Virus record (IMG/VR): IMGVR_UViG_3300044701_003953
Span: 62,001 to 126,000 of that record
DNA: 64,000 nucleotides
DNA from: a virus
Strand: one strand, 5' to 3'
Below the pieces are notes generated by a model. It saw nothing but the letters and a program-made list of their open reading frames with translations, made no database searches and was not told the origin of the DNA. Each line of letters opens with the position of its first letter. The stretch's first letter is position 1. The position numbers and the translations under genes are program-made. Below are positions 392-51,282 of this stretch, in pieces.

Positions 392-862
392 TCATAGATT
401 TTTTTCGTAGATCCAGCCAAGATGTTCGGTTTCGTGTATCCAGGTGTAGATGGGAAACGTCACGGGCAACACCCATTCTCCGTTCCAACCTAGGTAATCA
501 CCGCGGATCGCGGGTTCTAACACTATGCCTTGCTGTTCGCAGGTTCTGCGATATGCTTCAGGATAACGCGGATAGTATAAGGCCTGCTGACGGAAACTGT
601 CAAAATTCATGCCTTCGAACCCGATACCTTCTATGATCACGGCCTTGTCGAGATCCTGTTCGACTACTGTATCGCCGTCCCTTTTGTTGTAGAACTCCAC
701 GACCAAGAGATGGTCTCCATGTCCTCCGGAGACATCAAAAGTCTTGACGTGGTGATGATCGAGCTCGCCGCGGAACAATACTTGATCGTCCCAACGGATT
801 TCGATCTCGGGATAGTCGTCCCACCATACGGGTTTTAGAGTGATATCAATGACGGTATCCAT
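392..862 (-). CDS. Conserved hypothetical phage protein
   Basis: A 156-residue protein that I do not recognise by function. It starts MDTVIDITLKPVWWDDYPEI and is rich in Asp/Glu and aromatic residues. The alternating pattern in the first ~90 residues (EIRWDDQVLFRGEL, HLLVVEFYNKRDGD) suggests a small beta-sandwich, with an aromatic, helix-poor C-terminal half (YLGWNGEWVLPVTFPIY). There are no cysteines for metal binding apart from one, no signal peptide and no membrane segment. It overlaps the end of the upstream radical SAM gene by 17 bases, so it is probably translationally coupled to it. A carbohydrate- or protein-binding accessory is possible but unproven. Confidence 0.7.
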   Translation of the reverse strand: MDTVIDITLKPVWWDDYPEIEIRWDDQVLFRGELDHHHVKTFDVSGGHGDHLLVVEFYNKRDGDTVVEQDLDKAVIIEGIGFEGMNFDSFRQQALYYPRYPEAYRRTCEQQGIVLEPAIRGDYLGWNGEWVLPVTFPIYTWIHETEHLGWIYEKNL

Positions 863-2153
863 ATATCCTTAACCAATCTGTTGCTTCAGGTAAAAAATCT
901 TCGACGGTCTTGTCGTGGAGCTCATCCTGCTCGCTGAGCCTAGCAGCCATATCTCGGCGTAGTTCATCGGCTCCTGCCGGTTCAGGTCTCCGCAAGTGTC
1001 GTATCAACGCTTCTGCTTCGTTCTTTAATGTGATCTCGACGTTGTTGGGATTCTTGGTATTGTTGAATCTTTCACCTTGTATCTGTATGCTGTCTGCGAA
1101 ATCCTGTAAGTGCTGTATAGTATATGCTTTGAGATCCTCGGGCAAGAGATCTGACAACATCCATCTTGGACGATTTGGGTAGCTGGCATCGATGGGGATA
1201 CGACGATCCAGGGCGTGTTTCAGTAGCGTGTGGTATCTTAATACTGATAATGCTGTAGGTACTGTACGGAAAGTCCATTGTACTTCTGGCATAGCATCTC
1301 TCATATCATCCACATTACGCAGGATCTGTGTGATGTCTGCGCCTTGCCGCAGATAATCGTTGGCACGGTCTGCTGTTTCGATGCTGACGCCAATCTCTAC
1401 TCGTTTGAAGATACGCAAGAGATCATGATATTTTGAGTAGTTGATACTACCGTTGGTAGTGAACGACAAGTTTAACCAAGTCATCTTTTTGTCGGCAAAC
1501 ATCTTCAGCAGATCTCGGAAACGCTCAATGAGTTCAGGTTCTCCGCCGATGATGTGTACTACACGAACCGACTCGTAATTTACATCGAACCAGTCAACGA
1601 AACGCTGCCAAGCCACCGGATCCTGCGTCCATGGCTCTAACTTGTAGTCGATAGGAATCCATCCCATCTTCCGTTGATCTTGTGCCACACGGCTAGATGC
1701 TTCGGGCGGACAAAACTTACAGCTGAAATTACAAGTGGTACCGATGTTGAGATGTAGGCTGGCTATGCGGGTAACAGTCTCTCCGTCGTTGTTGGCGCTG
1801 TAATCAAAATACCCTTTGTGCGGACTCTGCTCAAAACTACGGTCAAACTGTCGCTGGAAGATCACCGACTTGAGATTTTCTTTCTGTCTCGCAGATGTAT
1901 AACCGGCAGCATCTTTCATCTGGCACATGCGGCACATAGGATCCACGGTATCACCTAATTTGATCCTGCGCTTTTCCCGCATGCGACTGCTGTTCCAATA
2001 GTCATCGATGCCGATGCGTTTGATATTCCACTCCCGTCCTTCGCTGGTCATGATGATTTTGTCATTCTGGCACCCGCAGAGATCGTAACTGCCATCGTGA
2101 TTGATGTTCAGTTCGAACCACGGTATGTTACAGAATATATCTTTATTTGCCAT
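846..2153 (-). CDS. Radical SAM protein with N-terminal twitch/SPASM-like cysteines
   Basis: A 435-residue radical SAM enzyme. The [4Fe-4S]-SAM motif CNFSCKFC (C-x3-C-x2-C) lies at about residue 141-148, followed by the SAM-binding IGGEPEL near 202. The N-terminus carries extra cysteines (FCNIPW, DLCGCQND, CRMCQMK) in the layout seen in twitch/SPASM auxiliary-cluster proteins, but placed before the core. Such enzymes make 5'-deoxyadenosyl radicals, often to modify peptides; the substrate here is unknown. It overlaps its upstream neighbour, another radical SAM gene, by 11 bases and lies downstream of gp46. The C-terminus ends in a DELHDKTVEDFLPEATDW segment that resembles the tails of other family members in this window. 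Family certain; reaction unknown. Confidence 0.88.
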   Translation of the reverse strand: MANKDIFCNIPWFELNINHDGSYDLCGCQNDKIIMTSEGREWNIKRIGIDDYWNSSRMREKRRIKLGDTVDPMCRMCQMKDAAGYTSARQKENLKSVIFQRQFDRSFEQSPHKGYFDYSANNDGETVTRIASLHLNIGTTCNFSCKFCPPEASSRVAQDQRKMGWIPIDYKLEPWTQDPVAWQRFVDWFDVNYESVRVVHIIGGEPELIERFRDLLKMFADKKMTWLNLSFTTNGSINYSKYHDLLRIFKRVEIGVSIETADRANDYLRQGADITQILRNVDDMRDAMPEVQWTFRTVPTALSVLRYHTLLKHALDRRIPIDASYPNRPRWMLSDLLPEDLKAYTIQHLQDFADSIQIQGERFNNTKNPNNVEITLKNEAEALIRHLRRPEPAGADELRRDMAARLSEQDELHDKTVEDFLPEATDWLRIYGYRH

Positions 2154-3114
2154 GTTTGCTACATTTAAATTTACAGATAGGAGGCGGAAACATCTCCCAC
2201 CGCATCTTTAGTTCGTCCCAACAAGGATCGCTTAACACCGCATCAAATCCGCGAGTGCGCACATTGATACGGTCTTGATATTTTTCCAAGAAATCGTTTT
2301 CCATGTAGCCCGATCCAAACCAAGCACAAGGGAAAAACCTTCCGTCGGCACTGACGAATGGCATCTGTATACCATTGAGACATGCCTGTGGAGCATCGGT
2401 ATCTCTCTTCACTGGGGGAAGATGATATTTCCTGCCAAGCACTAGATTAGATCTACTGTACACACGATCTTCTTTGTAATTGTCGGGCTCTAGTGTATCA
2501 ACGCCTTGGTCATTGAGGTATCTAGGATCGTTGCTACCAAATTTCATGCTACGGACCAGATCAAATTGGTCCACGCCTAAATCACTGGCTAGTTTCCTGA
2601 TCTCCTCGGCACGATGGGCGTTGAATCGGAACAGTATCGTGCTCCAACGTATGTTGACGTCAGAGGAACCGCTAAGTGTCTTCAGTCCCGTGATGATAGA
2701 ATCCCAATCGCTGTTGACGCGATATATCTTGTTGCTGGCATCGTCCCAGCCATCTACGCTAAACGTCACGCGATCTTTTTCGTTTAGGAACGAACCCAGC
2801 TCTCGCCACCACTCGGGCTTTTTGTAACTACCGTTCGTGACTATGTTGACTTGTGTCTCGGGAGAAACAGTTTTGACATATCCAACGATCTCCAAGAAAT
2901 CTGTGGCATAGATGGGATCGCCGATGTCTCCGCAGAAGCTGAGGTATTTTATCTTTGACAGCACATCTTGTGTGAAGATCTGTTGGAATTCTGTGAGGCT
3001 ATAATCCCTGTTGATCTGCGGATGATCATCTTTTAATTCCGTGCGAGGACAGCGGGGACATTTGAGCACACATTTGGAACTGACTTCCAAATGCAAATGC
3101 GTGATGTCAAACAC
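2143..3114 (-). CDS. Radical SAM/SPASM-type protein
   Basis: A 323-residue radical SAM protein of a different architecture from the other eight here. The core motif KCVLKCPRC (Cys15, Cys19, Cys22) is almost at the N-terminus. It is followed by FCGDIGDP in place of GGEP and by a canonical C-terminal SPASM-like region (ACLNGIQMPFVSADGRFFPC, then CKFKCSKH at the end). This is the usual order for peptide-modifying SPASM enzymes and anaerobic-sulfatase-maturase-like proteins. It overlaps gp46 by 8 bases upstream and the next radical SAM gene by 11 bases downstream, so the three are one translation-coupled unit. The substrate is unknown. Confidence 0.87.
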   Translation of the reverse strand: MFDITHLHLEVSSKCVLKCPRCPRTELKDDHPQINRDYSLTEFQQIFTQDVLSKIKYLSFCGDIGDPIYATDFLEIVGYVKTVSPETQVNIVTNGSYKKPEWWRELGSFLNEKDRVTFSVDGWDDASNKIYRVNSDWDSIITGLKTLSGSSDVNIRWSTILFRFNAHRAEEIRKLASDLGVDQFDLVRSMKFGSNDPRYLNDQGVDTLEPDNYKEDRVYSRSNLVLGRKYHLPPVKRDTDAPQACLNGIQMPFVSADGRFFPCAWFGSGYMENDFLEKYQDRINVRTRGFDAVLSDPCWDELKMRWEMFPPPICKFKCSKHGK

Positions 3115-4882
3115 CCGCGACCTCTACGTCGGTGTTGTAAGTGGTGAATCCGTTTTCTTTGACCACGTGCATGATGTTGTTCACTCGCCCTGCTAGTTCA
3201 TCTTTGTGCGATACTAGCCATACGCTACGATTCACGTCGCGGCTCATCTTCTTCAAGATAGCGAGTGCGTTCTCTACACCCGACGAGTCCATGCCCGAAT
3301 CTACTAGCTCGTCGATGAACAACAAGTTGATAGGCTGATACAGTCCTTCCCAGACATCTCGGAACGCCCAAGACAGTGAAAGGATCAAGCGATTGCGCTC
3401 ACCGCGTGATAAGTTGTCAAAGTCTAAGTCGCGCCCTAGCTCAGTGATCTCCACTGTGAGATCGTTCTGGAACTTCACTGTATGTGGGAGTCCGATACGA
3501 TCTAGATAGTAACTGAGTCGCTGGTTCAAGTAAGCGAGGTTCTGATCGATGATGCGTTTGCGCACGAACGAGTCCTTGCTGGTCAATAGTTTCAGCAAGA
3601 AGTCTTGGTGATCTCGCACTCGCGCGATCTCGTTGATAGTATCGTAGTTGACTTCTTCTACCGCCGCTTCTTCCATCTCACGGATCTGCTCGCTGTAGGG
3701 ATCATGTTCGGCTTCACGTGTGACCAGATTGGTCTTGAGTGTTTCCAGCGTATTGCGATGATTGAGGGCATCTTCCAGCGTGTCATAGAACACCACAGGA
3801 GGATGTCGCAAGTCGCCTAAATCTAGCAAAGCAGACTTGATAGCTTCCACTTCTTCGCCGATGGCCTTGGCTTGATCTTGTGCTTCAGTCAACGATGATT
3901 GTTTGCTATTCAGTATCTCGTCTTGCTTGGCATCGTGTATGTCTTGTCCACAAGCATAGCACTTGTGTTCTTTGAGAGACACGATTTCTTTTTCTAGTTT
4001 GGATGCTAGTTTAGTCAGACGATCTAGCTCGGCTTCGCTTTGACGCTGTGCTTTGGCCAAGTCAGATCGTGTTTTTTGTTCTTCGTTGAACGATACCAGA
4101 TCTCTGTGTGCTTGGATCTCGGCTTCGATGTCGATCTTTTCTAGTTCGGCGATACCTGCCCGCATCTTGTCGCAGTCTTCGTCTTGCTTGGCCACCCACA
4201 GTCGCTGGCGTTTGCGCAGGCTTTCGATCTGTTCTTCGATGCGCCGATTGGCGTCTTGGACGGCTTTGATGCGAGCTTCTTCTTGCGTGATGGCATCTTT
4301 AGTGGCTTTGATCTGCTCTTTGAGACGATCTGCTTTTTCCGATAGTAGAGTGATGCCCAGCAGTTGTTCGATGATGGTACGTTGATCGTTGGCTCGTAAA
4401 GCTAAGAATGGTTCTGTGTAAGTGTTGAGTGCTACTACATGCTTGAACATCTCGTGTTCCATGCCCAACATGCGTTCGATGTCGGCTTGTGTTTCTCTGC
4501 TGTCGCCTTGTGCGTCGTCGGTGATCTCTTGCTCGTCACCTGCCACCCAGAACTTCATGACATTGGGCTTGCGTCCGCGTTCGATGCGATAGTCTATGCC
4601 ATCTTTCTCAAACTCGATAGTGACCAACATGTTCTTGCCATTGGTCTTGTTGATGAGGTTGTCTTTTTTGATGTTGGTCAGCGCATTGCCATATAACGCA
4701 TAGCTGAGGGCGTTGATGATGGTAGTCTTGCCTGTGCCGTTACGGGCACCAGAATCGTCACCGCCGAGATCCAAGTTCTCACCTAAGACTAGCGTGAGAT
4801 CTTTTCGATCGAAATTCACAGCCTGCGTGGCGTTACCCACGCTCATGAAGTTTTTAACAGTCAGGGTTTTGATCTTGAACAT
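3107..4882 (-). CDS. 46: Recombination endonuclease subunit gp46 (Rad50/SbcC-like ATPase)
   Basis: A 591-residue SMC-like ATPase, matching T4 gp46 (560) in length. Walker A is ARNGTGKTT (residues 46-54). Long charged coiled-coil arms flank a zinc hook with CYACGQ (CxxC) at about residue 307-310. The ABC signature LSRGERNR is near 490, and Walker B LLFIDE with the following ELVDSGMD is near 520. With gp47 it forms the Mre11-Rad50-type complex that resects double-strand ends for recombination-dependent replication and packaging-linked DNA metabolism in the cytoplasm. Unusually, a radical SAM gene separates it from gp47. It starts 13 bases after that gene ends. Confidence 0.96.
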   Translation of the reverse strand: MFKIKTLTVKNFMSVGNATQAVNFDRKDLTLVLGENLDLGGDDSGARNGTGKTTIINALSYALYGNALTNIKKDNLINKTNGKNMLVTIEFEKDGIDYRIERGRKPNVMKFWVAGDEQEITDDAQGDSRETQADIERMLGMEHEMFKHVVALNTYTEPFLALRANDQRTIIEQLLGITLLSEKADRLKEQIKATKDAITQEEARIKAVQDANRRIEEQIESLRKRQRLWVAKQDEDCDKMRAGIAELEKIDIEAEIQAHRDLVSFNEEQKTRSDLAKAQRQSEAELDRLTKLASKLEKEIVSLKEHKCYACGQDIHDAKQDEILNSKQSSLTEAQDQAKAIGEEVEAIKSALLDLGDLRHPPVVFYDTLEDALNHRNTLETLKTNLVTREAEHDPYSEQIREMEEAAVEEVNYDTINEIARVRDHQDFLLKLLTSKDSFVRKRIIDQNLAYLNQRLSYYLDRIGLPHTVKFQNDLTVEITELGRDLDFDNLSRGERNRLILSLSWAFRDVWEGLYQPINLLFIDELVDSGMDSSGVENALAILKKMSRDVNRSVWLVSHKDELAGRVNNIMHVVKENGFTTYNTDVEVAGV

Positions 4883-4895
4883 AATCTTTGATATT

Positions 4896-6497
4896 TTACA
4901 CTAGTCCCAGTGCTTTCGCGACCTCGGGATGTGCTTTGGCAAAACTTTCTCCTCGCACAGAATCGAGTTGATTCATATAGTTGACGAATGGGATGTTTTC
5001 TGTATGCTTGGATTTTTCCAATATACCTAAAACTGTTTCGATGAAAGGTCGTGTGCGTTCGTTGAACGAATGGCTCTTAAGTTTTTCTATGCTGAGTTCG
5101 GCCGCTTTCTTTGGGATCTTTGACAAGCTCAGATGATCGGGGTTGTATAGTATGCTGAAGTATAGATCTTCGAATCCCGCACTCTCGATCCAATCACACA
5201 ATTCCGGGAGATAATGTACATTCATGACGCTTACTACACAATGTATGTTCAATATCACGTTATTGGTTTTATGTTCTTTGATGTATCGCACATTTTGTTC
5301 GACTGTGCTCCAACCAAATTTCTCGCCACCTGGGCGTTGTATATCGAATCGATCACCGATATCGTCGATACTGATAGCTAAGTCGATTTTTTTAAAGTGA
5401 CGCCATAGATCTAGTAGATGGTCATTGATGATCGAGCCATTGGTATTATAATGTATCGAAACATCGCCGGCGATATTCCGTTCTACCATCGATTCTAATG
5501 CTCGTAGATGATTCTTATCTAATAGCGGTTCGCCTCCGGCAAAGTCAAAATATTTTATCTGTGGGTTATCGATCACGCTATCCCATAGAGTCTGACCGTC
5601 ATGTATCCATTTGCCTTTTTCGATCGCTTGCCATGCTCGGTGTGTCTTTTTTTCTTTTGTAGACAAAGGTGCTAAAATCTCTCCAGCGATCTTGCTACTG
5701 CTTTTTTCGGAACAGATACGACATTTGAAATTACATACGTTCCCAAACGCCACAGAGACCATCTTGAGATTTTTTAGATCATCTTCTTCCCAATTGATAG
5801 ATCTGCTGTCGTCACCGAATCTTAAGGCATATAACTGTCTTTTACTGACAGCACCGCTTTCTTCCTCTTTCCAACAACGAGAACATGCTTGTAGTCTGAC
5901 ACCTTCGCGGAATAGTCTACGTAGCTTTTTCATGTAATTGCTATTATAGACTTCCTCCAATGAATCGACGGTTGGGTCAAACAAAGTACCGTTGTCTCTG
6001 GTGGCTCCGCCTTGATAAAAGCAACAAGGAGCGAATGTGCCGATTGGGCTGATATCTAGAGAATTCCAAGGCAAAGGGCACACAGTCGCTGGCATACCAA
6101 ACGCCGCACGACTTTCAGTTATTTCTGTGGGTTGATGGTGATTCCCGTCTGTCTGCTCATCGATGAGCACCGTGGGAGGTGAATCTACCCCGACCGCTTG
6201 GTAACATCGTGTCGCGATGTCGTGTTCCCTATCGCCGGGTAACACCAATACTATGAAAAAATTTGGGACATCGACGACTTTTAGTTGTTGGAAAAAGTCT
6301 TTGAAAAATCTTTCTAATAGATCGTCGCTGACAGTATCGCGGAGGTAAAACACCAGACGTTCATCGTCTCGGTACTCTTCTCTCTTCAGTGATTTGAGAT
6401 GTAGATAGAAATCGCCCCAAGACATAGAAAAGAAATCTCCGATGTCTTGGCATACGATGACAGAGTACTCTTCTTGTAGATTTTCTAATAGGGTCAT
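4896..6497 (-). CDS. Radical SAM protein with extra N-terminal domain, between gp47 and gp46
   Basis: A 533-residue protein in three parts. The first ~130 residues form an extra domain with no cysteine motif (SVIVCQDIGDFFSMSWGDF; VPNFFIVLVLPGD). Next comes an N-terminal twitch-like block, CPLPWNSLDISPIGTFAPCC at about 139, with CSRCWKEEE further on. The radical SAM core has CNFKCRICSEKSSSK at about 254 and GGEPLLD at about 320. The C-terminal tail YMNQLDSVRGESFAKAHPE closely matches that of the protein at 48777-49991. The gene overlaps gp47 by an ATGA (4 bases) and is followed by gp46 after 13 bases, so it is co-expressed with the recombination genes. The substrate and the role of the first domain are unknown. 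Confidence 0.9.
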   Translation of the reverse strand: MTLLENLQEEYSVIVCQDIGDFFSMSWGDFYLHLKSLKREEYRDDERLVFYLRDTVSDDLLERFFKDFFQQLKVVDVPNFFIVLVLPGDREHDIATRCYQAVGVDSPPTVLIDEQTDGNHHQPTEITESRAAFGMPATVCPLPWNSLDISPIGTFAPCCFYQGGATRDNGTLFDPTVDSLEEVYNSNYMKKLRRLFREGVRLQACSRCWKEEESGAVSKRQLYALRFGDDSRSINWEEDDLKNLKMVSVAFGNVCNFKCRICSEKSSSKIAGEILAPLSTKEKKTHRAWQAIEKGKWIHDGQTLWDSVIDNPQIKYFDFAGGEPLLDKNHLRALESMVERNIAGDVSIHYNTNGSIINDHLLDLWRHFKKIDLAISIDDIGDRFDIQRPGGEKFGWSTVEQNVRYIKEHKTNNVILNIHCVVSVMNVHYLPELCDWIESAGFEDLYFSILYNPDHLSLSKIPKKAAELSIEKLKSHSFNERTRPFIETVLGILEKSKHTENIPFVNYMNQLDSVRGESFAKAHPEVAKALGLV

Positions 6498-7510
6498 AGA
6501 TTCTGGTAGATGTTCAGCAACATGCCACGATCATACTGCTCGCTTTCGATGTTGGTGATCTGATCCGCCACGATCTGGTCTACGCTCTCAAACGCGATCT
6601 GCGCAGAGGAACCTCCGTCGGTGACGTCGGAGTTCTTGGCCGGGATCAGCGTGAACTCACGTAAGCCATATTGCCCCATGAATGTTTCTTTGAGGAACGA
6701 AGCTTCTTCGTAGGAGATGTCAACATCGATGTTGACACGGGCATGTAGCCCTTTGAACAACAGTGAATCGGTGTTTTTGAGTATGTTGGAAAGTTGATAC
6801 ACACGATAACGGGGTTGGTCGGGCCAAGCATGGAACACGGGATCTTTGCCCCATTCCAGGACCATCATGCCGCGTTCGTCGTCACCGGCATCAGCATAGT
6901 TATGCGGAAAGCAGTTTCCGATGTAAGTGATATTGTTATTGGATTGGCGTTTATGGAAATGTCCAGTAAACACCTGATCGAATCCGTGGAAGGCGTTGGC
7001 GTTGATCTCCCCGTGGTCGGGCATCTGTACCATGGCGTTCATGAAGTAGCCAGGTAACTCAAAGTGCCCAAACATGTATTTGCCTTTGAGCTTGGGTACC
7101 TTCTTGTGATCTTCTCCTACCAGCCAAGGTGCGATGACCACATCGCCTTCGTTGAACCAATCGTTACAGATGTGTACGTTTGGTAGATGCCGCGCCCACT
7201 CGACGCTTTGTACGTCACGGCGGTCTCTGTAGTAGAGATCGTGGTTGCCAGGGATGAAGAACACATTGTCAAAGTTCTCATTGAGGTGCTCTAGTGCCCG
7301 GAGGCTGTAAGTCAGTGTCACGATATTGATGGACGCACGATTGTTGTGCCAGTCGCCCAAGAACATCGCCGTCTCGCAACCTTCTTCTCGGGCTTTGGCA
7401 GTGGCCCATTTGACGAATGCTAGACAATCGTCGTTGTGTAATTGGCTGTTGGATTTAAGCCCAAAGTGGATGTCGGTGAACACCGCAGCCTTGCGGAACA
7501 GATTCGCCAT
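6494..7510 (-). CDS. 47: Recombination endonuclease subunit gp47 (Mre11/SbcD-like)
   Basis: A 338-residue calcineurin-like metallophosphoesterase, the same size class as T4 gp47 (339). The metal-binding motifs appear in order: FTDIHFG near residue 10-16, LGDWHNN near 51, PGNHD near 86, GHFE near 149 and TGHFHKRQ near 183. It is the nuclease partner of gp46 and processes DNA ends for recombination-dependent replication. It lies directly downstream of the gp55-like gene (6-base gap) and its stop overlaps the start of the following radical SAM gene in ATGA. All metal ligands expected of the family are visible, so it should be active. Confidence 0.96.
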   Translation of the reverse strand: MANLFRKAAVFTDIHFGLKSNSQLHNDDCLAFVKWATAKAREEGCETAMFLGDWHNNRASINIVTLTYSLRALEHLNENFDNVFFIPGNHDLYYRDRRDVQSVEWARHLPNVHICNDWFNEGDVVIAPWLVGEDHKKVPKLKGKYMFGHFELPGYFMNAMVQMPDHGEINANAFHGFDQVFTGHFHKRQSNNNITYIGNCFPHNYADAGDDERGMMVLEWGKDPVFHAWPDQPRYRVYQLSNILKNTDSLLFKGLHARVNIDVDISYEEASFLKETFMGQYGLREFTLIPAKNSDVTDGGSSAQIAFESVDQIVADQITNIESEQYDRGMLLNIYQNL

Positions 7511-7516
7511 GTTTGA

Positions 7517-43639: not shown

Positions 43640-45045
43640 TGAATAAAGGCGACGAAGCAGTAGGCAACAAAAGCAAGTTCATGGCTTCAGCCGAGTGGAT
43701 GAAAGAACACCTCGGCGAAGGGTTCTGCTTGGCCAAATGGAAGCAGGTCAGCCTACACTTGCCCACAGGACTCAACAACTCCTGCTACCATCCTCCCTTG
43801 CACCACATCGATCCTGCGCCACTCAAAGATAATCCCGGCGCATTGCACAACACCGAGCACAAGAAACAACAGCGTGTTATCATGCTGAAAAACGAGCGTC
43901 CTGGTGAATGCCAATACTGCTGGAACATCGAAGACACCGGCAATCTCAGCGACAGACATTATCGCAGTGGCGAACCCTGGGCAGCCGAGGACTATGAAGC
44001 CATCCGTGCCTCCGCAGGCACCGAAGACTGGATTCCCAGTTATGTAGAAGTCAACTTCAATCATGCTTGTAATCTGGCCTGCTCGTATTGTAGCCCACAG
44101 TTTTCGTCGACCTGGCAATCGGAAGTAGACAAGTGGGGAGCCTGGCCTACGTCAACTCCACACAACGCACCCGAGCACTTCCAAGGTCGCAATCGTCCCA
44201 TCCCGCACAGCCAAGAGAATCCCTATGTGGATGCTTTCTGGGAATGGTGGCCACAACTGTATCCCAAGTTGAAACATTTCCGCATGACTGGCGGTGAACC
44301 ACTCATGGATCGAAATACCTACAAGGTGTTTGACTATGTGTTAGCCCTGCCCAACCCTGAGCTACATCTCAATGTCACTTCTAACTTCTCTGTGGAACCT
44401 AAACTGTTTGAGAAATATCTCGACTATGTGAAACGCTTGTGTAACACACAGATCGAACACTTCATGCAATATGTGAGCCTAGACACCGGCGAACCTCAGC
44501 ATGCCGAATACATCAGGCATGGGCTCAACTTCCGTCGCATGTGGGATTATGTACATCGCTATCTCGACGAGATCCCGTATCGCAACAGCCTCACATTCAT
44601 TATCACCATGAACAATCTGTCGGTCCTGGGCATACAACGACAACTGGAGTGGATCCTGGATCTGCGGCGCATGTATTCCAAGACCTATCAGCGTGTGTGG
44701 TTTGATACTCCATTGTTGCGCCAGCCTAAATGGCAGAGCCTACAGATACTTCCGCCAGTGTATGCTGACCGACTCGAGCGTGTGGCAGACTGGATGGAAC
44801 TAAACTTAGAAACGCCCGAGGATCCCTTCCACGGTTTCAAAGACTATGAAGTGCAACGCATCCGGCGCGACATCGCGTGGATGCGTGAAGGACAGAAACT
44901 GGATCACGACTACATAGTTGGACAACGTGCCGACTTCTATCGTTTCTTCAATGAACACGACAAGCGTCGTGGCACTGATTTTGAAAGGACTTTCCCTGAG
45001 ATGCGGGAATTTTGGCAGGAGTGCAGATACCATGCCCAACGATAA
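43639..45045 (+). CDS. Radical SAM protein, SCxHPP class (member 1)
   Basis: A 468-residue radical SAM enzyme; an ATG two codons earlier (43633) is also possible. The N-terminal block FCLAKWKQVSLHLPTG, NNSCYHPPLHH, NPGALHNTEHKK and ECQYCWNIEDTG carries paired Cys/His sites that could hold an auxiliary iron-sulfur cluster. The core CNLACSYC is at about 144-151 and TGGEPLMD at about 217. The C-terminal FYRFFNEHDKRRGTDFERTF ends in PEM. The protein at 46110-47462 is a close paralogue. Substrate unknown. Confidence 0.9.
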   Translation: MNKGDEAVGNKSKFMASAEWMKEHLGEGFCLAKWKQVSLHLPTGLNNSCYHPPLHHIDPAPLKDNPGALHNTEHKKQQRVIMLKNERPGECQYCWNIEDTGNLSDRHYRSGEPWAAEDYEAIRASAGTEDWIPSYVEVNFNHACNLACSYCSPQFSSTWQSEVDKWGAWPTSTPHNAPEHFQGRNRPIPHSQENPYVDAFWEWWPQLYPKLKHFRMTGGEPLMDRNTYKVFDYVLALPNPELHLNVTSNFSVEPKLFEKYLDYVKRLCNTQIEHFMQYVSLDTGEPQHAEYIRHGLNFRRMWDYVHRYLDEIPYRNSLTFIITMNNLSVLGIQRQLEWILDLRRMYSKTYQRVWFDTPLLRQPKWQSLQILPPVYADRLERVADWMELNLETPEDPFHGFKDYEVQRIRRDIAWMREGQKLDHDYIVGQRADFYRFFNEHDKRRGTDFERTFPEMREFWQECRYHAQR

Positions 45046-46117
45046 GTTTTGTGTTCGTCCTTTCATGCACAGTCTTGTTGACACCGAAGGGCGATTCAAA
45101 CCTTGTTGCCGTAGTCAAGTTGACACTGGATTTAATATCAAGTCACATACTGTTGAAGAATGGTGGAACAGCGAATATCTCAATGATTTCCGTGACAGGA
45201 TCAAAAGAAACGAATACAGCAAAGAATGTGACAGGTGCTATCGACAGGAACAGCAAGGATCAAAGAGCTTCCGCGAATACAGCAACGAACGGTGGCCAGA
45301 TGTCAAAACTACTAGAGAAAGACCAATCGATTGGGAGATACAGTTATCAAATCTTTGCAATTTGAAATGTTTGATGTGTAACCCACAATCCAGTAGCCAG
45401 TTCTTAGTAGAAGAAAATAAGCTATTTGGAAAAAAGTGGGATCAAACCAAATACGATTGGGATGCCAAAGACAACAGCAAGATACTCGAGATAATGCAAC
45501 AAAGCGAGAGTTTCATCCTACGAGGCGGAGAACCGTTTATGTTGCCGTGGGTAAAGGACATCATCTCATCGTTAGCAGATCGAAAAGAAATAATGATAGC
45601 TACCAACGGCACTCGGTTCGATCAAAGTTGGCTTGACGTCCTTTCGGGGCACGACATCAAGATTTGTCTGAGCCTTGACGGGCACGGAAAACTCAATCAT
45701 TACATACGCTATCCTAGTAAATGGAATGACATACTGGATAACATCAAATTGATGCGGAAGATCCCAGGTGTGAATCTTTTCGTGAACACCGTAGTCCAAA
45801 ATCTCAACGTGTTACACATCGACCGATTGTTAGACTGGACCAAGGGCGAAGAGTTATTTGTGCAATTCGATATACTAACTAAACCTAAATATCTAGAACC
45901 GTCGTGCTTACCTGCCGAGTTGGCTAAACTCGCACAAGACCGTCTGGGCAGAGTTGATCACCAATCTCAGAATGGGCTCGAAGGGATAATCAATACTTTA
46001 GATAATGCCACAGATGAGTATTGGGAAGAATTCGTGGAAACTATAACTATCAGAGATAGACATCGTGGCGTAGATATAGTAAACTATATACCCGAGATGG
46101 AGCCATACTTTGCCTAG
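45032..46117 (+). CDS. Radical SAM protein, PCC-type twitch class
   Basis: A 361-residue enzyme starting at ATG 45032 (MPNDKFCVRPFMHSLVDTEG); a longer frame from 44918 only runs through the previous gene, and AGGAG precedes 45032. The N-terminal block FCVRPF, RFKPCC and CDRCYRQEQQGSKSFR is followed by the core CNLKCLMC (~109-116) and RGGEPFML (~164). CLSLDGHGKLNHYIRYP and the tail RHRGVDIVNYIPEMEPYFA match its siblings. It overlaps its upstream neighbour by 14 bases. Confidence 0.9.
   Translation: MPNDKFCVRPFMHSLVDTEGRFKPCCRSQVDTGFNIKSHTVEEWWNSEYLNDFRDRIKRNEYSKECDRCYRQEQQGSKSFREYSNERWPDVKTTRERPIDWEIQLSNLCNLKCLMCNPQSSSQFLVEENKLFGKKWDQTKYDWDAKDNSKILEIMQQSESFILRGGEPFMLPWVKDIISSLADRKEIMIATNGTRFDQSWLDVLSGHDIKICLSLDGHGKLNHYIRYPSKWNDILDNIKLMRKIPGVNLFVNTVVQNLNVLHIDRLLDWTKGEELFVQFDILTKPKYLEPSCLPAELAKLAQDRLGRVDHQSQNGLEGIINTLDNATDEYWEEFVETITIRDRHRGVDIVNYIPEMEPYFA
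46099..46102 (+). promoter_or_regulatory. Ribosome site GGAG deciding a TTG start
   Basis: GGAG lies 7 bases before TTG 46110. The next in-frame ATG is far inside the conserved N-terminal block, so TTG is the most likely start. Confidence 0.6.
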
Positions 46118-47462
46118 ACTACATAATGAAACTGACCTAGAATTCCGGAAACGTGTGCTCGATTCTAAGAGTGCTAGTTTCTGTGGAGCCAAATGGTACA
46201 ACGCTACCATATGGTTAGGCTCCGGCATGACCACATCCTGTCATCACCCTCCTGCGCATTTCGTGCCAGTGGAGGCCATCCAACGTAACCCCAAGGCGCT
46301 ACATAACAGCGACGAAAAGAAAAACGACCGCGCCATGATGCAACGTGGCGAACGTCCACCCGGTTGTGAGTATTGCTGGAAGATCGAAGACATGGGTCGT
46401 GATGCTGTTTCAGACCGTGTCTATAAAAGCGTGATCTACACCGACGAGGAACTCAATGAAGCTTATCTATTACCCACCGCTGAGGACGCAAATCTACGCA
46501 CTCTCGAAATCAGTTTCGATCGTACTTGCCAATTGGCTTGTAGCTACTGTAATCCTGCTTTCTCTTCTACATGGGTTAAGGACATTAAAACCCGAGGGCC
46601 TTATATCGAGTTGGTTAGTGATGGTAGGAATCACTTCACTCATGATCACGCTAGTGCTCAACTTTATCGATACGGTGAAGTCAATCCGTATGTTGAGGCA
46701 TTTTTCCGCTGGTGGGAAACCGACCTACATAAGACGCTTAGAGAGTTACGGATCACCGGAGGAGAACCACTCATGTCCGGCTACACCTGGCAACTCATCG
46801 ACTGGTTCAAACAAAACCGCGGCAAGTCAAACACACGCCTAGCCATCAACTCCAACTTGGCTATGCCGTCGGATCGTATACAAGAACTCCTAGATGCTTG
46901 CGAGGGTATCGAACTGGATATCTATACTTCCAACGAAGCACTACATTCGCAGGCCGAATACATCAGAGACGGGCTCCAATGGCAACAATGGCAAACCAAC
47001 ATGCGTTTGTTGGCCTCCAGTGGTAGGCTACGGGGCTTACACAACATGTGTACTATCAACGCATTGTGTCTCGAATCATTGCCTGAGTTCTTGGATTTCT
47101 TGGTAGAGATGAAACGAGAGTTTGGCAGAGATTTCCCCAACTTCACGCTAAACATCCTGCGTTTTCCGTCGTTCCAAAGCCCTTTGGTGTTGCCTGATGA
47201 CATACGTGAACACCACAAGCAGAGACTAGTTGAGTGGATGGTCAAGCACAAAGGCCACAGCTATCTACATCAGCATGAGATAAACCATGTGCTAAGATTG
47301 ATAGATTATCTAGATGTAGTCAAGACTCCGCACCGCGAGACTTTTGAGCGTCCAGCCCTACACAACGACTTCCGTAAATTCTACGAACAATACGATCAGC
47401 GTAGGGGTAAAAATTTCCCCGAAACATTTCCTGGCCTAGCCGACTGGTATTCCACACTATGA
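46110..47462 (+). CDS. Radical SAM protein, SCxHPP class (member 2)
   Basis: A 450-residue enzyme read from TTG 46110. FCGAKWYNATIWLGSG, TSCHHPPAHF, NPKALHNSDEKK and CEYCWKIEDMG parallel the protein at 43639-45045 block by block. Core CQLACSYC is at ~140-147 and TGGEPLMS at ~217. IYTSNEALHSQAEYIRDG and the tail FYEQYDQRRGKNFPETFPGL also match. It overlaps the neighbour before by 8 bases and the next by an ATGA. Two SCxHPP enzymes interleaved with PCC-type ones suggests ordered steps or partner pairs. Confidence 0.9.
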   Translation: MPRLHNETDLEFRKRVLDSKSASFCGAKWYNATIWLGSGMTTSCHHPPAHFVPVEAIQRNPKALHNSDEKKNDRAMMQRGERPPGCEYCWKIEDMGRDAVSDRVYKSVIYTDEELNEAYLLPTAEDANLRTLEISFDRTCQLACSYCNPAFSSTWVKDIKTRGPYIELVSDGRNHFTHDHASAQLYRYGEVNPYVEAFFRWWETDLHKTLRELRITGGEPLMSGYTWQLIDWFKQNRGKSNTRLAINSNLAMPSDRIQELLDACEGIELDIYTSNEALHSQAEYIRDGLQWQQWQTNMRLLASSGRLRGLHNMCTINALCLESLPEFLDFLVEMKREFGRDFPNFTLNILRFPSFQSPLVLPDDIREHHKQRLVEWMVKHKGHSYLHQHEINHVLRLIDYLDVVKTPHRETFERPALHNDFRKFYEQYDQRRGKNFPETFPGLADWYSTL

Positions 47463-48790
47463 GTGATACAAAAGATTTCTACAACAAGGGCTACGACTAC
47501 AATAGTCGGGCACCTTATTTCGTCGAGCGCAAAGACTTGACACCCGAGCAGTGGCGCAAGCTCACGGAGAGCGATACCTTCTGTATGTTACCTTGGATGC
47601 ACATGCACGCCTTCCCAGATGGTCGTGCTTATCCCTGCTGTCTCAGCGAATACTTCCACCCCGTAGGCGATCTGCGCAAACACACCATGGAAGAAGTATG
47701 GAACCAAGAAAAGTATCGCACCATGCGTCAGAACATGCTCACGGATAAGCCATGTAAAGAATGTACTAAGTGCTATGAGCAAGAGAAGGCTGGATTCTTT
47801 TCTATGCGCAATGATGCCAACAGGAACTACGGGCATCATATCTCAGACATACATAAGACACAACCAGATGGAACACACCCCGACTTCAAGATCCGTTATT
47901 GGGACGTACGATTCAGCAATCTCTGTAACATGAGATGTCGTAGCTGTGGCCCTATCTTTTCGTCGAACTGGTTCAATGACCATGTCAAGATGTATGGCGT
48001 AGTGCCCGATGTACTCAAACGACCCATGGCCAGGGTAGAATATACTACCGGCGACGAGGATGGCATGTTGGCACAGATGGAGCCACATATCCCTTATCTC
48101 GAACAAGTCTACTTCGCAGGTGGCGAACCGCTGATCATGAAAGAGCACTACTACATGCTGGAGAAGTTGATCGAAGCCGGCAAGACTGATGTGCGACTGA
48201 TCTACAACACCAATTTCTCAGAACTGCGCTACAAAGACAAACATGTGTTTGAGTTCTGGAAACACTTCAAAACAGTGAATGTGGGCGCCAGCCTAGATGC
48301 TTCGGGCGCCCGGGCCGAGCTCATGCGCAAAGGCACTGAGTGGACGCAGACCGTGGACAACCGCCGCAGGATGATGGAGGAAGTGCCGCATGTGGACTTC
48401 TATGTCAGCGCCACGGTATCCTCGATGAATGTGCTACATGTGTTAGACTTCCATCGCGAATGGAGCGAACTGGGCCTGATCCGCCCCAAGGACTTCAATG
48501 TCAATATCTGCCAAAGTCCTGAATGGTACAGGATCGACATCTTCCCCGAAGCGTTCAAGCGAGAAGTCATCGAACCTGCTTACCGTAGACACATCGAGTG
48601 GCTTGATCCGCAGGACACGCTACGCCGTGCTACCACTGGATTCGAAAGCGCCATCAACTTCATGATGAGCACAGACAACAGCCATCTCTTGCCACGCTGG
48701 AGAGAAGAGACCGCCAAGTTGGATCGCGTGAGGGACGAAGACTTTTGGAAGACCTTCACAGAATTGGAGACACTACGTGACTCTGCCTAA
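47459..48790 (+). CDS. Radical SAM protein, PCC-type twitch class
   Basis: A 443-residue enzyme. An N-terminal extension of about 40 residues precedes FCMLPWMHMHAFPDGRAYPC and CKECTKCYEQEKAGFFSMR. The core CNMRCRSC is at ~156-163, AGGEPLIM at ~220, and IYNTNFSELRY follows. Its start overlaps the previous stop (ATGA). Codons here end mostly in C or G, more so than in the structural block. The C-terminal tail (LDRVRDEDFWKTFTELETL) keeps the D..R..F arrangement but lacks the PE of its siblings. Confidence 0.9.
   Translation: MSDTKDFYNKGYDYNSRAPYFVERKDLTPEQWRKLTESDTFCMLPWMHMHAFPDGRAYPCCLSEYFHPVGDLRKHTMEEVWNQEKYRTMRQNMLTDKPCKECTKCYEQEKAGFFSMRNDANRNYGHHISDIHKTQPDGTHPDFKIRYWDVRFSNLCNMRCRSCGPIFSSNWFNDHVKMYGVVPDVLKRPMARVEYTTGDEDGMLAQMEPHIPYLEQVYFAGGEPLIMKEHYYMLEKLIEAGKTDVRLIYNTNFSELRYKDKHVFEFWKHFKTVNVGASLDASGARAELMRKGTEWTQTVDNRRRMMEEVPHVDFYVSATVSSMNVLHVLDFHREWSELGLIRPKDFNVNICQSPEWYRIDIFPEAFKREVIEPAYRRHIEWLDPQDTLRRATTGFESAINFMMSTDNSHLLPRWREETAKLDRVRDEDFWKTFTELETLRDSA
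48766..48769 (+). promoter_or_regulatory. Ribosome site GGAG supporting a GTG start
   Basis: GGAG lies 7 bases before GTG 48777 inside the end of the preceding gene. It selects GTG, which gives MTLPKTICMLPW, the same opening as its siblings. Confidence 0.6.
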
Positions 48791-49991
48791 GACCATCTGT
48801 ATGCTACCATGGATGAGCATCGAGACTTCGCCAATGGGTACAGCTCGGCCTTGCTGTCTTGCTGACGAAGAGATCACTGATGCCAATGGTGTCAAATATG
48901 ATCTCAATGTCAGCACACTGCGCGAAGTCTATGACAGCGAATACATGCAGGAACTGAGACGTCAATTCCGTCGAGGTGAAAAACCCAAGACATGTAATCG
49001 TTGCTGGGAAGAGGAAGCCGCTGGAAGGACCAGCAAGCGTATACACAGCCGTGTACGACTCAAAGAACTCTATGCCCAAGTGGACTGGGAAAATGATCGA
49101 CCTGACCAACTCTGGTTCGTAGATCTCAAACTAGGTAACATTTGTAATCTCAAATGCCGTATCTGCGGATCCTGGAGTTCCAGCAAGTGGGCTGAAGAAG
49201 AGATGAACTACTTGCCCAAGACCGTGGACAAGAAAACACACATCGCTTACACCTGGCTCAAGCAAGGACAATGGCCCCGCAAGACCGAGACCTTCTGGGA
49301 TGACCTGCGCGGACTCTTGCCCAACATTCGCTACTTTGAATTCACTGGTGGCGAACCCTGGTTGATCCAAGAGCACATCGACCTGCTCAAGTTCGCTGTG
49401 GAGACCGGCGACAGTCATCACATCGACATACACTACAACACCAATGCCACACAATGGCCCGACGATCTGGTAGAGATCTGGAAAGACTTCGGACGGGTGG
49501 ACATCGCCTTTAGCATCGACAATGTGGGAGAGCGTTTCGAGTTTGAGCGTTTCCCTGCCGACTGGAACAAAGCCAATGAGATCGTGGATGCCGTTCATGC
49601 GTTACAAAAGACGCACACCAACATCACTACCCAACTGTGCTTCACGCTCAACATACAGAATGTTTACTACCTCGATGAGTTGCTGGCCTGGGCAGACACC
49701 AAAGGCTTTGACAACATCTACTTCAACATGCTACATAGTCCCAGCCGCATGAGCATACAGTCCATGACGCCAGTGGCGCAAGAGTTGGTAGTTGGTAAAC
49801 TACGCAACACCGATTGGCGCACTGAATACCAACGCGAAGTTGATAATGTCATCAACTTCATTGAGAACGGTGCAGGTAGCGACGGGCGTGAGTTTTGCCG
49901 TCTCATGAAGCAGACTGACGCTTACCGTAAGCAAGACTTCGCCACCACACACCCTGAGATAGCAAAGGCCATGGGATATGAACAAACCTGA
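48777..49991 (+). CDS. Radical SAM protein, PCC-type twitch class (closest sibling of 4896-6497)
   Basis: A 404-residue enzyme from GTG 48777. CMLPWMSIETSPMGTARPCC and CNRCWEEEAAGRTSKR form the N-terminal block, CNLKCRIC at ~123-130 the core, and TGGEPWLI at ~190 the SAM site. IDIHYNTNATQWPDDLVEIW and SIDNVGERFEFERFP are very similar to the enzyme lying between gp47 and gp46, which indicates duplication between distant operons. The tail QTDAYRKQDFATTHPEIAKA matches too. It overlaps both neighbours by 14 bases. Confidence 0.92.
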   Translation: MTLPKTICMLPWMSIETSPMGTARPCCLADEEITDANGVKYDLNVSTLREVYDSEYMQELRRQFRRGEKPKTCNRCWEEEAAGRTSKRIHSRVRLKELYAQVDWENDRPDQLWFVDLKLGNICNLKCRICGSWSSSKWAEEEMNYLPKTVDKKTHIAYTWLKQGQWPRKTETFWDDLRGLLPNIRYFEFTGGEPWLIQEHIDLLKFAVETGDSHHIDIHYNTNATQWPDDLVEIWKDFGRVDIAFSIDNVGERFEFERFPADWNKANEIVDAVHALQKTHTNITTQLCFTLNIQNVYYLDELLAWADTKGFDNIYFNMLHSPSRMSIQSMTPVAQELVVGKLRNTDWRTEYQREVDNVINFIENGAGSDGREFCRLMKQTDAYRKQDFATTHPEIAKAMGYEQT

Positions 49992-51282
49992 ACATCGTCC
50001 CGCGACACTTTGTATGGCACCGTGGACTCACACATATCTGAGTCCACAGACTGAGCGCCGGATGTGCTGTGCTAGTCGTGAACCTGCACAGAACTTCCAG
50101 CAGTATATTGATACAGCTGCTGGTACAGGAAAATATATTCCCATTACCTTGGACGAGCATTGGAACGGCGAGCACATGAAGAGTGTGAGACGCCGAATGA
50201 TGACCGGCGAGACTTTGCCCGAATGCGATGTGTGTAACAGCAAGCTCTTGAACACAGACGTTTACCGTAGTTATTTTAACCATCTTTTCGGACATAAGTA
50301 TAATAGCATATGGGACTCTACTGACGAGACCGGAAATACTACTATGCAGCCAGTGAGTTGGGATTACAGGTTTTCCAACTTGTGTAACTTCAAATGCAGA
50401 ACCTGTGGAGACATGTTAAGCAGTGCTTGGGAGTCTGAGCAACGCCAACACAACATGATCGACTGGACCAATCCCAAGAATCAGTGGATGGTCCCTGAAA
50501 TCAAAAAGCAAATTGAAGGTTTTCAAAATGAACAGGTAGAGGCCGAGTTTTCACAGGCCGTTGAGGAGCACCGAGTCGAAGAAGTCTACTGGGTTGGCGG
50601 CGAGCCACTCATGTACGAACAGCATTGGCGATACATGAAACGTATCGTTGACTTGGGAGATGGACAAAATGTTTACGCTAGATACAACACAAATCTTAGT
50701 AGGATTGATTATAGAGGTATTAATCTTTATCGGGATATTCTTAGTAGGTTACGGGATTGGCAAATCTGTGCAAGCATCGACGGATCGGGCCGAATTGGTG
50801 AATATATTCGAACAGGTCTCGATTTTAGTCGGTGGCTTGAGAACTTCAAACAAGGAGTTGAAATCAGTACTCATAAACGCCAGATGCGTATTGACTTCAC
50901 TCTTACACTCCCGGGTCTCTTCGAAGTTCGACAGATGACCCAGCTCGGGCAGGAACTGGGTGTTGACACATTAGCCAAAGTCATATTCAGTTTCTCGCCC
51001 GACATCATACTCAGTCCATTGGCCTTGCCAAGGGAGTTACTAGAACCCTGGTTAGACGAACTCATACCCGATACACATGGCGCCATGCAGGATATTTTGG
51101 TACAACTCAAAGCACGACCTACGTTCCAAGAACAGTGGCCCGATCAGTGGCAAGCGGGTCTTGCGAAAGGCAAGGCTCGTGTGTTAAAATTAGAACAGAT
51201 CAGAAATGACGATTACACCATGGACGACATATTAAGCCAGCGTCCAGAGGTACATAAATGGTGGAGAAACATCGATGCTTGA
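49978..51282 (+). CDS. Radical SAM protein, PCC-type twitch class
   Basis: A 434-residue enzyme. CMAPWTHTYLSPQTERRMCC and CDVCNSKLLNTDVYRSY form the N-terminal block. CNFKCRTC is at ~136-143, VGGEPLMY at ~206, and ARYNTNLSRIDYRG follows. The tail is LKLEQIRNDDYTMDDILSQR with PEVHKWW. Around codons 230-262 the third codon positions become T-rich, unlike the rest of the gene, and a second frame with a membrane segment is open there (50669-50938). It overlaps the next gene by 8 bases. Confidence 0.92.
   Translation: MNKPEHRPATLCMAPWTHTYLSPQTERRMCCASREPAQNFQQYIDTAAGTGKYIPITLDEHWNGEHMKSVRRRMMTGETLPECDVCNSKLLNTDVYRSYFNHLFGHKYNSIWDSTDETGNTTMQPVSWDYRFSNLCNFKCRTCGDMLSSAWESEQRQHNMIDWTNPKNQWMVPEIKKQIEGFQNEQVEAEFSQAVEEHRVEEVYWVGGEPLMYEQHWRYMKRIVDLGDGQNVYARYNTNLSRIDYRGINLYRDILSRLRDWQICASIDGSGRIGEYIRTGLDFSRWLENFKQGVEISTHKRQMRIDFTLTLPGLFEVRQMTQLGQELGVDTLAKVIFSFSPDIILSPLALPRELLEPWLDELIPDTHGAMQDILVQLKARPTFQEQWPDQWQAGLAKGKARVLKLEQIRNDDYTMDDILSQRPEVHKWWRNIDA
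50669..50938 (+). CDS. Possible overprinted small membrane protein inside a radical SAM gene
   Basis: An 89-residue frame (+1 relative to the host gene) from ATG 50669, with GGGAG 9 bases upstream. It encodes MFTLDTTQILVGLIIEVLIF followed by IGIFLVGYGIGKSV, one clear transmembrane helix, then an amphipathic stretch (DRAELVNIFEQVSILVGGL) and a basic C-terminus. The host gene's wobble positions are unusually T-rich exactly over the membrane segment, which would be expected if the second frame were under selection. It could still be chance; conservation of this frame has not been tested. Confidence 0.3.
   Translation: MFTLDTTQILVGLIIEVLIFIGIFLVGYGIGKSVQASTDRAELVNIFEQVSILVGGLRTSNKELKSVLINARCVLTSLLHSRVSSKFDR

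What the first reader, a model, noticed from the sequence alone, without database searches (positions are those of the whole stretch)
846..51282. Nine radical SAM proteins in one 64-kb phage segment
Seen directly: nine C-x3-C-x2-C proteins, all nine with auxiliary cysteine blocks. Three lie in the recombination operon and six follow one another in the accessory operon. Phages often carry one or a few radical SAM genes; nine imply a dedicated multistep radical chemistry. The neighbourhood (glycosyltransferases, SGNH-like esterases, carbamoyltransferase, sugar aminotransferase) suggests a glycopeptide or glycan modification.
Basis: partly seen in the sequence, partly recalled or inferred. Interest (0 to 1): 0.8.

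Follow-up and report, generated by a model that had tools for sequence, protein, structure and literature searches.

The report
Conserved radical-enzyme glycan cassette in giant phages
A large uncultured virus of bacteria carries nine iron-sulphur 'radical' enzymes in this stretch, and five of them recur in a fixed order beside sugar-attaching enzymes in at least 72 related viral contigs, so they look like one old, functional assembly line that probably tailors a sugar coat, although what it modifies is not known.

Summary
In detail: nine intact radical SAM (rSAM) genes. Eight belong to one family, NF033640 (N-terminal twitch). The ninth (2143-3114, -) is a different rSAM with C-terminal cysteines. 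The 207.5-kb record holds eleven PF04055 matches. The count itself is not new: Campylobacter phages CP220 and CPt10 have 11 and 12, and a TARA T4-like genome has 12.

What appears undescribed is the organisation. Downstream of the tail fibres runs a co-oriented block: V331, S104, two glycogenin-like glycosyltransferases (GTa, GTb), S122, a GT2-like glycosyltransferase (GTc), R4, R6, R7, R8, R9, U355, SGNH, O-carbamoyltransferase. In 72 of 72 non-redundant phage contigs the five core rSAMs keep this order. Complete arrays hold 4-7 rSAMs, because accessory rSAMs, glycosyltransferases and sugar enzymes are inserted between core genes. The core is under strong purifying selection (dN/dS 0.02-0.07). 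R1-R3 sit separately, interleaved with gp46/gp47.

The block lacks the virion genes' late-promoter motif; sigma-70-type promoters precede it. Neighbours resemble amino-sugar/aminocyclitol enzymes. The phage thymidylate synthase is single and dUMP-type, which argues against cytosine hypermodification.

Best reading: a multi-enzyme glycan-tailoring module, probably acting on a surface glycan. Substrate and chemistry are inferred, not shown.

The parts
846..2153 (-). R1: N_Twi radical SAM protein in the gp46/gp47 operon
   Evidence: NF033640 228 bits, cut-off 170; same position in loci L148 and L149
2143..3114 (-). R2: radical SAM protein of another type, auxiliary cysteines C-terminal
   Evidence: PF04055 33 bits, NF033640 only 41 bits, best NCBIfam TIGR04317 57 bits below cut-off
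3107..4882 (-). gp46-like SbcC/Rad50 recombination protein (operon of R1-R3)
   Evidence: PF13476 1e-12
4896..6497 (-). R3: N_Twi radical SAM protein with a 135-aa N-terminal extension, between gp46 and gp47
   Evidence: NF033640 321 bits; an rSAM beside gp47 in some relatives, absent in others
6494..7510 (-). gp47-like SbcD nuclease
   Evidence: PF00149
39401..40396 (+). V331: presumed virion protein, last gene before the module
   Evidence: immediately upstream of the module in nearly all relatives; no match in 50,697 phage records
40415..40467 (+). intrinsic terminator (GCGGCC...GGCCGC, T-run) followed by an extended -10 box TGCTATAAT: start of the module's transcription unit
   Evidence: sequence; sigma-70-like promoters before S104 in 43 of 97 relatives against 5.2 in shuffles
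40471..40785 (+). S104: first gene of the module, unknown function
   Evidence: conserved position; no PHROG match
40754..41536 (+). GTa: GT8-like glycosyltransferase
   Evidence: profile of GTa+GTb hits glycogenin-1 at 3e-4
41529..42404 (+). GTb: GT8-like glycosyltransferase
   Evidence: same profile; conserved order
42358..42726 (+). S122: small conserved protein of unknown function
   Evidence: conserved position
42677..43639 (+). GTc: GT2-like glycosyltransferase, invariant DGD
   Evidence: PF13641 in 9 of 20 relatives, best 0.001; AF2 model pLDDT 82, top Foldseek hits are glycosyltransferases
43633..45045 (+). R4: N_Twi radical SAM protein, core array member 1
   Evidence: NF033640 306 bits; 40 of 40 complete arrays
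44918..46117 (+). R5: N_Twi radical SAM protein, accessory slot (likely start near 45032)
   Evidence: NF033640 281 bits; absent or replaced in most relatives
46110..47462 (+). R6: N_Twi radical SAM protein, core array member 2
   Evidence: NF033640 300 bits; 40 of 40 arrays
47459..48790 (+). R7: N_Twi radical SAM protein, core array member 3
   Evidence: NF033640 396 bits; 39 of 40 arrays; AF2 model pLDDT 78.5
48777..49991 (+). R8: N_Twi radical SAM protein, core array member 4
   Evidence: NF033640 338 bits; 39 of 40 arrays
49978..51282 (+). R9: N_Twi radical SAM protein, core array member 5
   Evidence: NF033640 287 bits; 40 of 40 arrays
51464..52531 (+). U355: conserved protein of unknown function directly after R9
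   Evidence: alignment A4, 38-82% identity; no PDB relative
52509..53078 (+). SGNH-like hydrolase/acyltransferase
   Evidence: GDSF motif read in sequence; no Pfam hit; inference
53148..53702 (+). second SGNH-like hydrolase/acyltransferase
   Evidence: GDSF motif read in sequence; no Pfam hit; inference
53668..55197 (+). O-carbamoyltransferase
   Evidence: PF16861 3e-48, PF02543 2e-37; nearest PDB entries NovN, GdmN, TobZ
55188..55622 (+). APS-kinase-like P-loop kinase, accessory
   Evidence: PF01583 4e-8
55619..56032 (+). cytidylyltransferase-like protein, accessory
   Evidence: HPGH-type motif read in sequence; no Pfam hit; inference
56213..57355 (-). GTx-like protein, possibly a glycosyltransferase; family recurs between R4 and R6 in relatives
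   Evidence: no PDB or confident Pfam hit
59771..60943 (-). DegT/StrS aminotransferase
   Evidence: PF01041 3e-76; nearest PDB scyllo-inositol transaminase 7b0d
60828..61799 (-). NDP-sugar epimerase/dehydratase
   Evidence: PF01370 6e-44

Best explanation
The window holds a phage-encoded, multi-step carbohydrate-tailoring module. After the tail-fibre genes a terminator ends the late virion operon and a host-type sigma-70 promoter starts a new one. Its glycosyltransferases (GTa, GTb, GTc) are proposed to build or extend a glycan. An ordered set of N_Twi radical SAM enzymes (core R4, R6, R7, R8, R9, plus optional extra rSAMs, sugar enzymes and SGNH proteins) is proposed to make successive radical changes (dehydrogenation, epimerisation, deoxygenation or C-C bond formation) on sugar or aminocyclitol residues. 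A carbamoyltransferase and SGNH acyl/esterase proteins would cap them. The product is most likely a surface glycan of the infected cell (receptor masking, superinfection control), less likely a glycan on the virion fibre. R1-R3, beside gp46/gp47, are further rSAM enzymes in a second, variable slot. SHOWN: the genes, families, order, conservation, selection and promoter type by motif. INFERRED: sugar substrate, reaction types, surface-glycan target.
For: Fixed order GTc-R4-R6-R7-R8-R9-U355-carbamoyltransferase in 72/72 non-redundant contigs, 52 with all five core rSAMs, one strand. dN/dS 0.02-0.07. Each core rSAM is its own clade, so the set is old rather than recently duplicated. Glycosyltransferase assignments. 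Carbamoyltransferase, one copy, in 18/18 array phages and in all 7 bacterial MAGs with the rSAM family tested, against 1/14 controls; nearest structures NovN, GdmN, TobZ. The DegT aminotransferase is nearest scyllo-inositol transaminase. Accessory genes with Pfam hits include epimerases, UDP-sugar dehydrogenase, aminotransferase, sulphotransferase, hexapeptide transferase, AMP-binding enzymes and rSAM/B12-binding proteins. In Bdellovibrionota chromosomes N_Twi genes lie beside a GTc homologue (L147) and a StrB1-like inosamine-phosphate amidinotransferase. The twitch aligns with BtrN, an aminocyclitol dehydrogenase. Module genes lack the late motif (GTa-R9 0-9 each, at or below shuffles) that precedes virion genes (fibre 56/65, wedge 44/50); sigma-70 sites precede S104 in 43/97 against 5.2 shuffled.
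Against: No substrate, product or reaction is shown. GT assignments rest on weak profile or fold matches, and most accessory genes have no Pfam hit at all. Always lying next to the fibre and V331 genes fits virion modification too. The R7 model matches rSAM enzymes of every kind (peptide, nucleotide, lipid, sugar), so the fold does not pick a substrate. Promoter timing is inferred from motifs, not measured. The carbamoyltransferase and DegT matches are to families that act on many small molecules.
Confidence: 0.5

Rival explanations
1. Virion decoration: the module modifies the phage's own fibre or V331 adhesin. Glycogenin-like transferases start a protein-linked glycan and the rSAM enzymes change side chains or the attached sugars, altering receptor binding or shielding.
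For: V331 and fibre genes lie immediately upstream in nearly all relatives; GTa/GTb resemble glycogenin, a protein-glycosylating enzyme; virion glycosylation by phage-encoded transferases is described for mycobacteriophages (cited in PMC12619734).
Against: A separate terminator and sigma-70-type promoter, without the late motif of the virion genes; a GTc homologue and N_Twi genes also lie together in a bacterial chromosome, away from phage tails (L147).
Confidence: 0.25
2. Peptide natural product: the rSAM enzymes mature a ribosomal peptide (ranthipeptide, sactipeptide or cyclophane-like), with glycosylation as tailoring.
For: Many SPASM/twitch rSAM enzymes act on peptides; the best fold hit of R7 is the sactipeptide enzyme CteB; weak below-cut-off scores to peptide maturases.
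Against: The auxiliary domain is N-terminal, not C-terminal; all scores lie far below maturase cut-offs (e.g. PapB 35 against 340); no obvious precursor among the small ORFs S104 and S122.
Confidence: 0.1
3. DNA hypermodification: the carbamoyltransferase and glycosyltransferases decorate hydroxymethylpyrimidines in phage DNA.
For: A phage carbamoyltransferase makes 5-carbamoyloxymethylcytosine and co-occurs with thymidylate-synthase homologues (PMC8670742); both families occur in this phage.
Against: The only thymidylate-synthase homologue (61796-62707, -) keeps the dUMP-type Asn (LGVPFNIASY), and each of six phages tested has only one, so no dCMP or dUMP hydroxymethylase was found.
Confidence: 0.05
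4. No joint function: a hypervariable island where unrelated rSAM genes accumulate independently.
For: Accessory rSAMs and R5 vary between relatives; R1-R3 lie elsewhere and are variable; related islands are hypervariable in pelagimyophages (PMC7029224) and Campylobacter phages (PMC2853527).
Against: Five core rSAMs in constant order in 72/72 non-redundant contigs, dN/dS 0.02-0.07, no internal decay.
Confidence: 0.1

Closest known systems
NF033640 twitch domain-containing radical SAM family (NCBIfam)
   Same: Eight of nine proteins exceed its cut-off over the full length.
   Different: Its title names only a domain architecture, no reaction; here it appears as an ordered multi-gene array within a glycosyltransferase operon.
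Interchangeable radical SAM module of Campylobacter phages CP220/CPt10 (PMC2853527)
   Same: T4-related phages with 11-12 rSAM genes, about five in one cluster, beside an amidinotransferase and nucleotide-sugar transferases.
   Different: None of the CP220 rSAM genes reaches the N_Twi cut-off (best 31 bits of 170), and the cluster is swapped en masse rather than built on a fixed ordered core.
T4-like TARA_ERS488813_N000010 with 12 radical SAM genes (PMC5332604)
   Same: A marine T4-like genome (183 kb) with many rSAM genes.
   Different: That report counts Fe-S genes and describes no ordered glycosyltransferase-rSAM module in the passages read; its sequence was not compared here.
Host recognition cluster of pelagimyophages (PMC7029224)
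   Same: Hypervariable region by the tail fibres with glycosyltransferases (GT8 noted) and rSAM cassettes.
   Different: The authors describe variable cassettes; here a fixed five-rSAM core with a fixed order is present.
Vibrio phages K566/K567
   Same: Sequenced phages with a short N_Twi cluster: five matches in K566, two over the cut-off.
   Different: Long-branch, divergent copies; no detectable GTc, GTb, V331 or U355 homologue in any phage record.
Bdellovibrionota N_Twi clusters
   Same: Nearest bacterial relatives of R4, R6 and R7, in multi-copy clusters, up to about 30 matches per genome.
   Different: Chromosomal, with other neighbours and no conserved phage order.
BtrN (butirosin aminocyclitol dehydrogenase)
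   Same: N-terminal domain of the array proteins aligns with BtrN's twitch (2e-4).
   Different: In BtrN the twitch is C-terminal; the rSAM cores are not close.

Membership tests
NF033640 N_Twi_rSAM | full-length score above the curated cut-off (170 bits) | tested here: met
   R1, R3-R9 score 228-396; R2 (41) does not
NF033640 N_Twi_rSAM | C-x3-C-x2-C plus N-terminal auxiliary cysteines | tested here: met
   invariant C8, C28, C74, C77 and C141, C145, C148 in all eight
Campylobacter phage CP220 rSAM module | same rSAM subfamily | tested here: not met
   best CP220 score 31 bits against cut-off 170
Campylobacter phage CP220 rSAM module | several rSAM genes beside nucleotide-sugar transferases | tested here: met
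   annotation of CP220 and here
Peptide-maturing rSAM/SPASM enzymes | C-terminal SPASM/twitch and maturase model above cut-off | tested here: not met
   auxiliary domain N-terminal in eight; all maturase scores below cut-off
Peptide-maturing rSAM/SPASM enzymes | adjacent precursor peptide | tested here: inconclusive
   only S104, S122 and a 62-aa ORF nearby, none precursor-like by eye
Viperin | NF038283 above cut-off | tested here: not met
   best 45 bits against 180
Carbamoyl-hydroxymethylcytosine DNA modification | dCMP hydroxymethylase (Asp at TS position 177) | tested here: not met
   single TS homologue with Asn-type motif
Carbamoyl-hydroxymethylcytosine DNA modification | modified bases in virion DNA | not testable with these tools
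   needs LC-MS of virion DNA
GT8 glycosyltransferases (GTa, GTb) | profile similarity to a GT8 enzyme | tested here: met
   glycogenin-1, E 3e-4; no Pfam GT model reached, so membership is provisional
GT2 glycosyltransferases (GTc) | GT-A fold and DxD motif | tested here: met
   invariant DGD; Foldseek top hits GT2 enzymes, E 2e-4, low TM-scores; PF13641 in 9 of 20 relatives; provisional
O-carbamoyltransferases | Carbam_trans N and C domains | tested here: met
   PF02543 and PF16861 above cut-offs

The most novel reading that the evidence does not exclude
A widespread, uncultured group of giant T4-like phages encodes a modular radical assembly line: an invariant five-enzyme N_Twi rSAM backbone, diversified by inserted rSAM, B12-rSAM, halogenase, glycosyltransferase and sugar genes, that makes an unknown class of densely tailored, aminocyclitol-like glycans on the infected cell or virion, with a bacterial counterpart in predatory Bdellovibrionota.
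Probability: 0.25. Interest if true: 0.85.

Novelty: new variant of a known kind. Interest (0 to 1): 0.62.

Why it matters
Clusters of rSAM genes in phages have been noted since 2010 without explanation. A fixed, selected five-enzyme core in 72 distinct contigs, with accessory enzymes inserted around it, turns that into a tractable question: one operon, a defined gene order and a comparison set. If the substrate is a glycan, it would be a phage route to radical-based sugar chemistry, relevant to receptor evasion in aquatic bacteria and a source of unstudied enzymes; the N_Twi family has no named reaction.

Tried and rejected
Alignment A1 was too diverse for a contig scan, so single proteins and subfamily alignments were used. 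T4-style late promoter TATAAATA: no match; the motif in use is [TCA]TAAATA. PDB searches with R7, GTc, U355 and GTx profiles gave nothing. The R7 fold search gave only generic rSAM matches. Isolate-phage searches for GTc, GTb, V331 and U355 gave none. A C-terminal motif suspected as a docking tag was not found by regular expression in window or record proteins. The hypothesis that this is the moraphage lineage was dropped: no rSAM is mentioned there and the hosts are Bacteroidota. The first order test and accessory-gene list missed L090-L099 through a naming slip; the order test was repeated. The dN/dS estimates use a simple Nei-Gojobori count and dS is saturated for some genes.
Full report
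OBSERVATION. Nine ORFs in the window carry an intact C-x3-C-x2-C motif. A PF04055 search of the whole 207,520-base virus record (window = 62,001-126,000) finds these nine plus two others, eleven in all. Eight of the nine pass the NF033640 (N_Twi_rSAM) cut-off; R2 is a different rSAM type. The eight share only 17-22% identity with R1, yet keep seven cysteines, GGEP and other residues, so they are old paralogues or independent recruits, not recent duplications. The auxiliary domain is N-terminal; its profile aligns with the C-terminal twitch of BtrN, as if permuted.

THE PHAGE. Baseplate wedge, hub-lysozyme, tail-fibre and gp46/gp47 genes mark a T4-like giant myovirus. R1, R2 and R3 lie around gp46 and gp47 on the minus strand. 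The same arrangement occurs in L148 and L149, while other relatives have gp46 directly beside gp47, so this slot is variable.

PRIOR REPORTS. High rSAM counts in phages are known: 11 in Campylobacter phage CP220 and 12 in CPt10, with an interchangeable five-rSAM cluster and an amidinotransferase (PMC2853527); 12 in a 183-kb T4-like marine genome (PMC5332604); rSAM cassettes in the host recognition cluster of pelagimyophages (PMC7029224). CP220's genes are not N_Twi, although they too lie beside nucleotide-sugar transferases.

THE MODULE. Relatives were collected with the wedge protein, R7 and GTc (at least 595 contigs encode a GTc relative, a lower bound). Labelled gene order shows a constant backbone: fibre, V331, S104, GTa, GTb, S122, GTc, R4, R6, R7, R8, R9, U355, carbamoyltransferase. 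R5 occupies a variable slot; extra rSAMs, GTx, epimerases and SGNH genes are inserted between core genes. After removing near-duplicates, 72 contigs carry at least three core rSAMs; all 72 keep the order and 52 carry all five. In 40 contigs spanning GTc to U355/carbamoyltransferase there are 4-7 rSAM genes, and each core gene is present in 39 or 40. Motif losses occur only in ORFs cut by contig ends. Against the two closest relatives, core rSAM dN/dS is 0.02-0.07 where dS is not saturated. A tree of 97 proteins puts each core rSAM and its orthologues in one clade; bacterial relatives of R4, R6 and R7 are mostly Bdellovibrionota (quick method, several long branches and weak deep forks). In 59 genomes of that phylum, 16 exceed the cut-off and some carry more than 20 matches. 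Two contigs binned as Rhodobacteraceae and Rickettsiales MAGs carry the phage gene order and are probably misbinned phages.

PARTNERS. The GTa/GTb profile reaches glycogenin-1. GTc has weak Glyco_tranf_2_3 matches in 9 of 20 relatives, an invariant DGD and a model whose best matches are GT2 enzymes, with low TM-scores. The carbamoyltransferase is single-copy in all 18 array phages tested and present in all seven bacterial MAGs tested, but in one of 14 control genomes; one of those seven MAG matches lies on the probable phage contig. Its nearest structures are NovN, GdmN and TobZ. A DegT aminotransferase at 59771-60943 is nearest scyllo-inositol transaminase. Accessory insertions that have Pfam hits are mostly sugar or tailoring enzymes and rSAMs, but most have no hit; the rest of the record gave very different families. 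A B12-binding rSAM and a tryptophan halogenase occur in or beside two arrays. In Bdellovibrionota, N_Twi genes lie beside a GTc homologue (L147) and a StrB1-like amidinotransferase.

EXPRESSION. Between V331 and S104 lie a terminator and an extended -10 box. Across relatives S104 is preceded by sigma-70-like promoters in 43 of 97 cases (5.2 in shuffles), while the late motif [TCA]TAAATA precedes fibre (56 of 65), wedge (44 of 50) and other virion genes but not the module genes. The module is therefore probably one transcription unit, expressed independently of the late virion programme. Shuffles were mononucleotide, so the numbers are indicative.

INTERPRETATION. The partners, their bacterial counterparts and the permuted BtrN-like twitch make a sugar or aminocyclitol substrate the most economical guess; the early-type promoter favours the infected cell's surface over the virion. 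DNA hypermodification is disfavoured by the dUMP-type, single thymidylate synthase. Peptide maturation is disfavoured by architecture and scores. None of this identifies a reaction: the R7 model resembles rSAM enzymes of all kinds.

LIMITS. Most relatives are contig fragments; the 72 share ancestry and are not independent trials; the GT2/GT8 labels are provisional; no isolate carries the full module, so experiments must start with expressed enzymes or with distant clusters such as that of Vibrio phage K566. The literature search covered open-access papers only, so 'undescribed' means not found there.

Noticed in passing
record G000:56700-57863 (-), outside the window: An ammonium transporter (PF00909, 1e-101) encoded by the phage record.
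   Followed up: partly
record G000:16408-17250 (-), 130984-131844 (+), 181778-182470 (+): Three TRAP-type DctP solute-binding proteins, the last matching in two pieces within one open frame.
   Followed up: partly
record G000:160835-162070 (-): Isocitrate lyase (PF00463) in two abutting matches covering profile positions 6-253 and 352-526, i.e. a version lacking about 100 central positions.
   Followed up: partly
window 18976-33126 (+): A 4,716-aa ORF of lower G+C (about 0.41) between baseplate and fibre genes, with only seven cysteines; preceded by a late-promoter motif.
   Followed up: no
L143-L145 (one 46.9-kb contig binned as Rickettsiales bacterium MED657): Likely phage contig with about 17 rSAM-like genes within some 27 kb, N_Twi and R2-type interleaved, plus a carbamoyltransferase.
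   Followed up: partly
L136:6906-9113: A 735-aa protein fusing two rSAM domains, N_Twi followed by a second rSAM.
   Followed up: partly
L118:11690-13456: A B12-binding radical SAM protein (likely cobalamin-dependent) inserted between R7 and R8.
   Followed up: partly
L092:17673-19244: A tryptophan-halogenase-family protein shortly after U355 in a related array.
   Followed up: partly
L140-L141 (Bdellovibrionia MAG): A chromosomal run of about 14 N_Twi genes in 40 kb with an inosamine-phosphate-amidinotransferase-like gene.
   Followed up: partly
window 57354-59783 (+): An 809-aa protein with repeated, similar segments, possibly several glycosyltransferase-like domains, next to the module.
   Followed up: no
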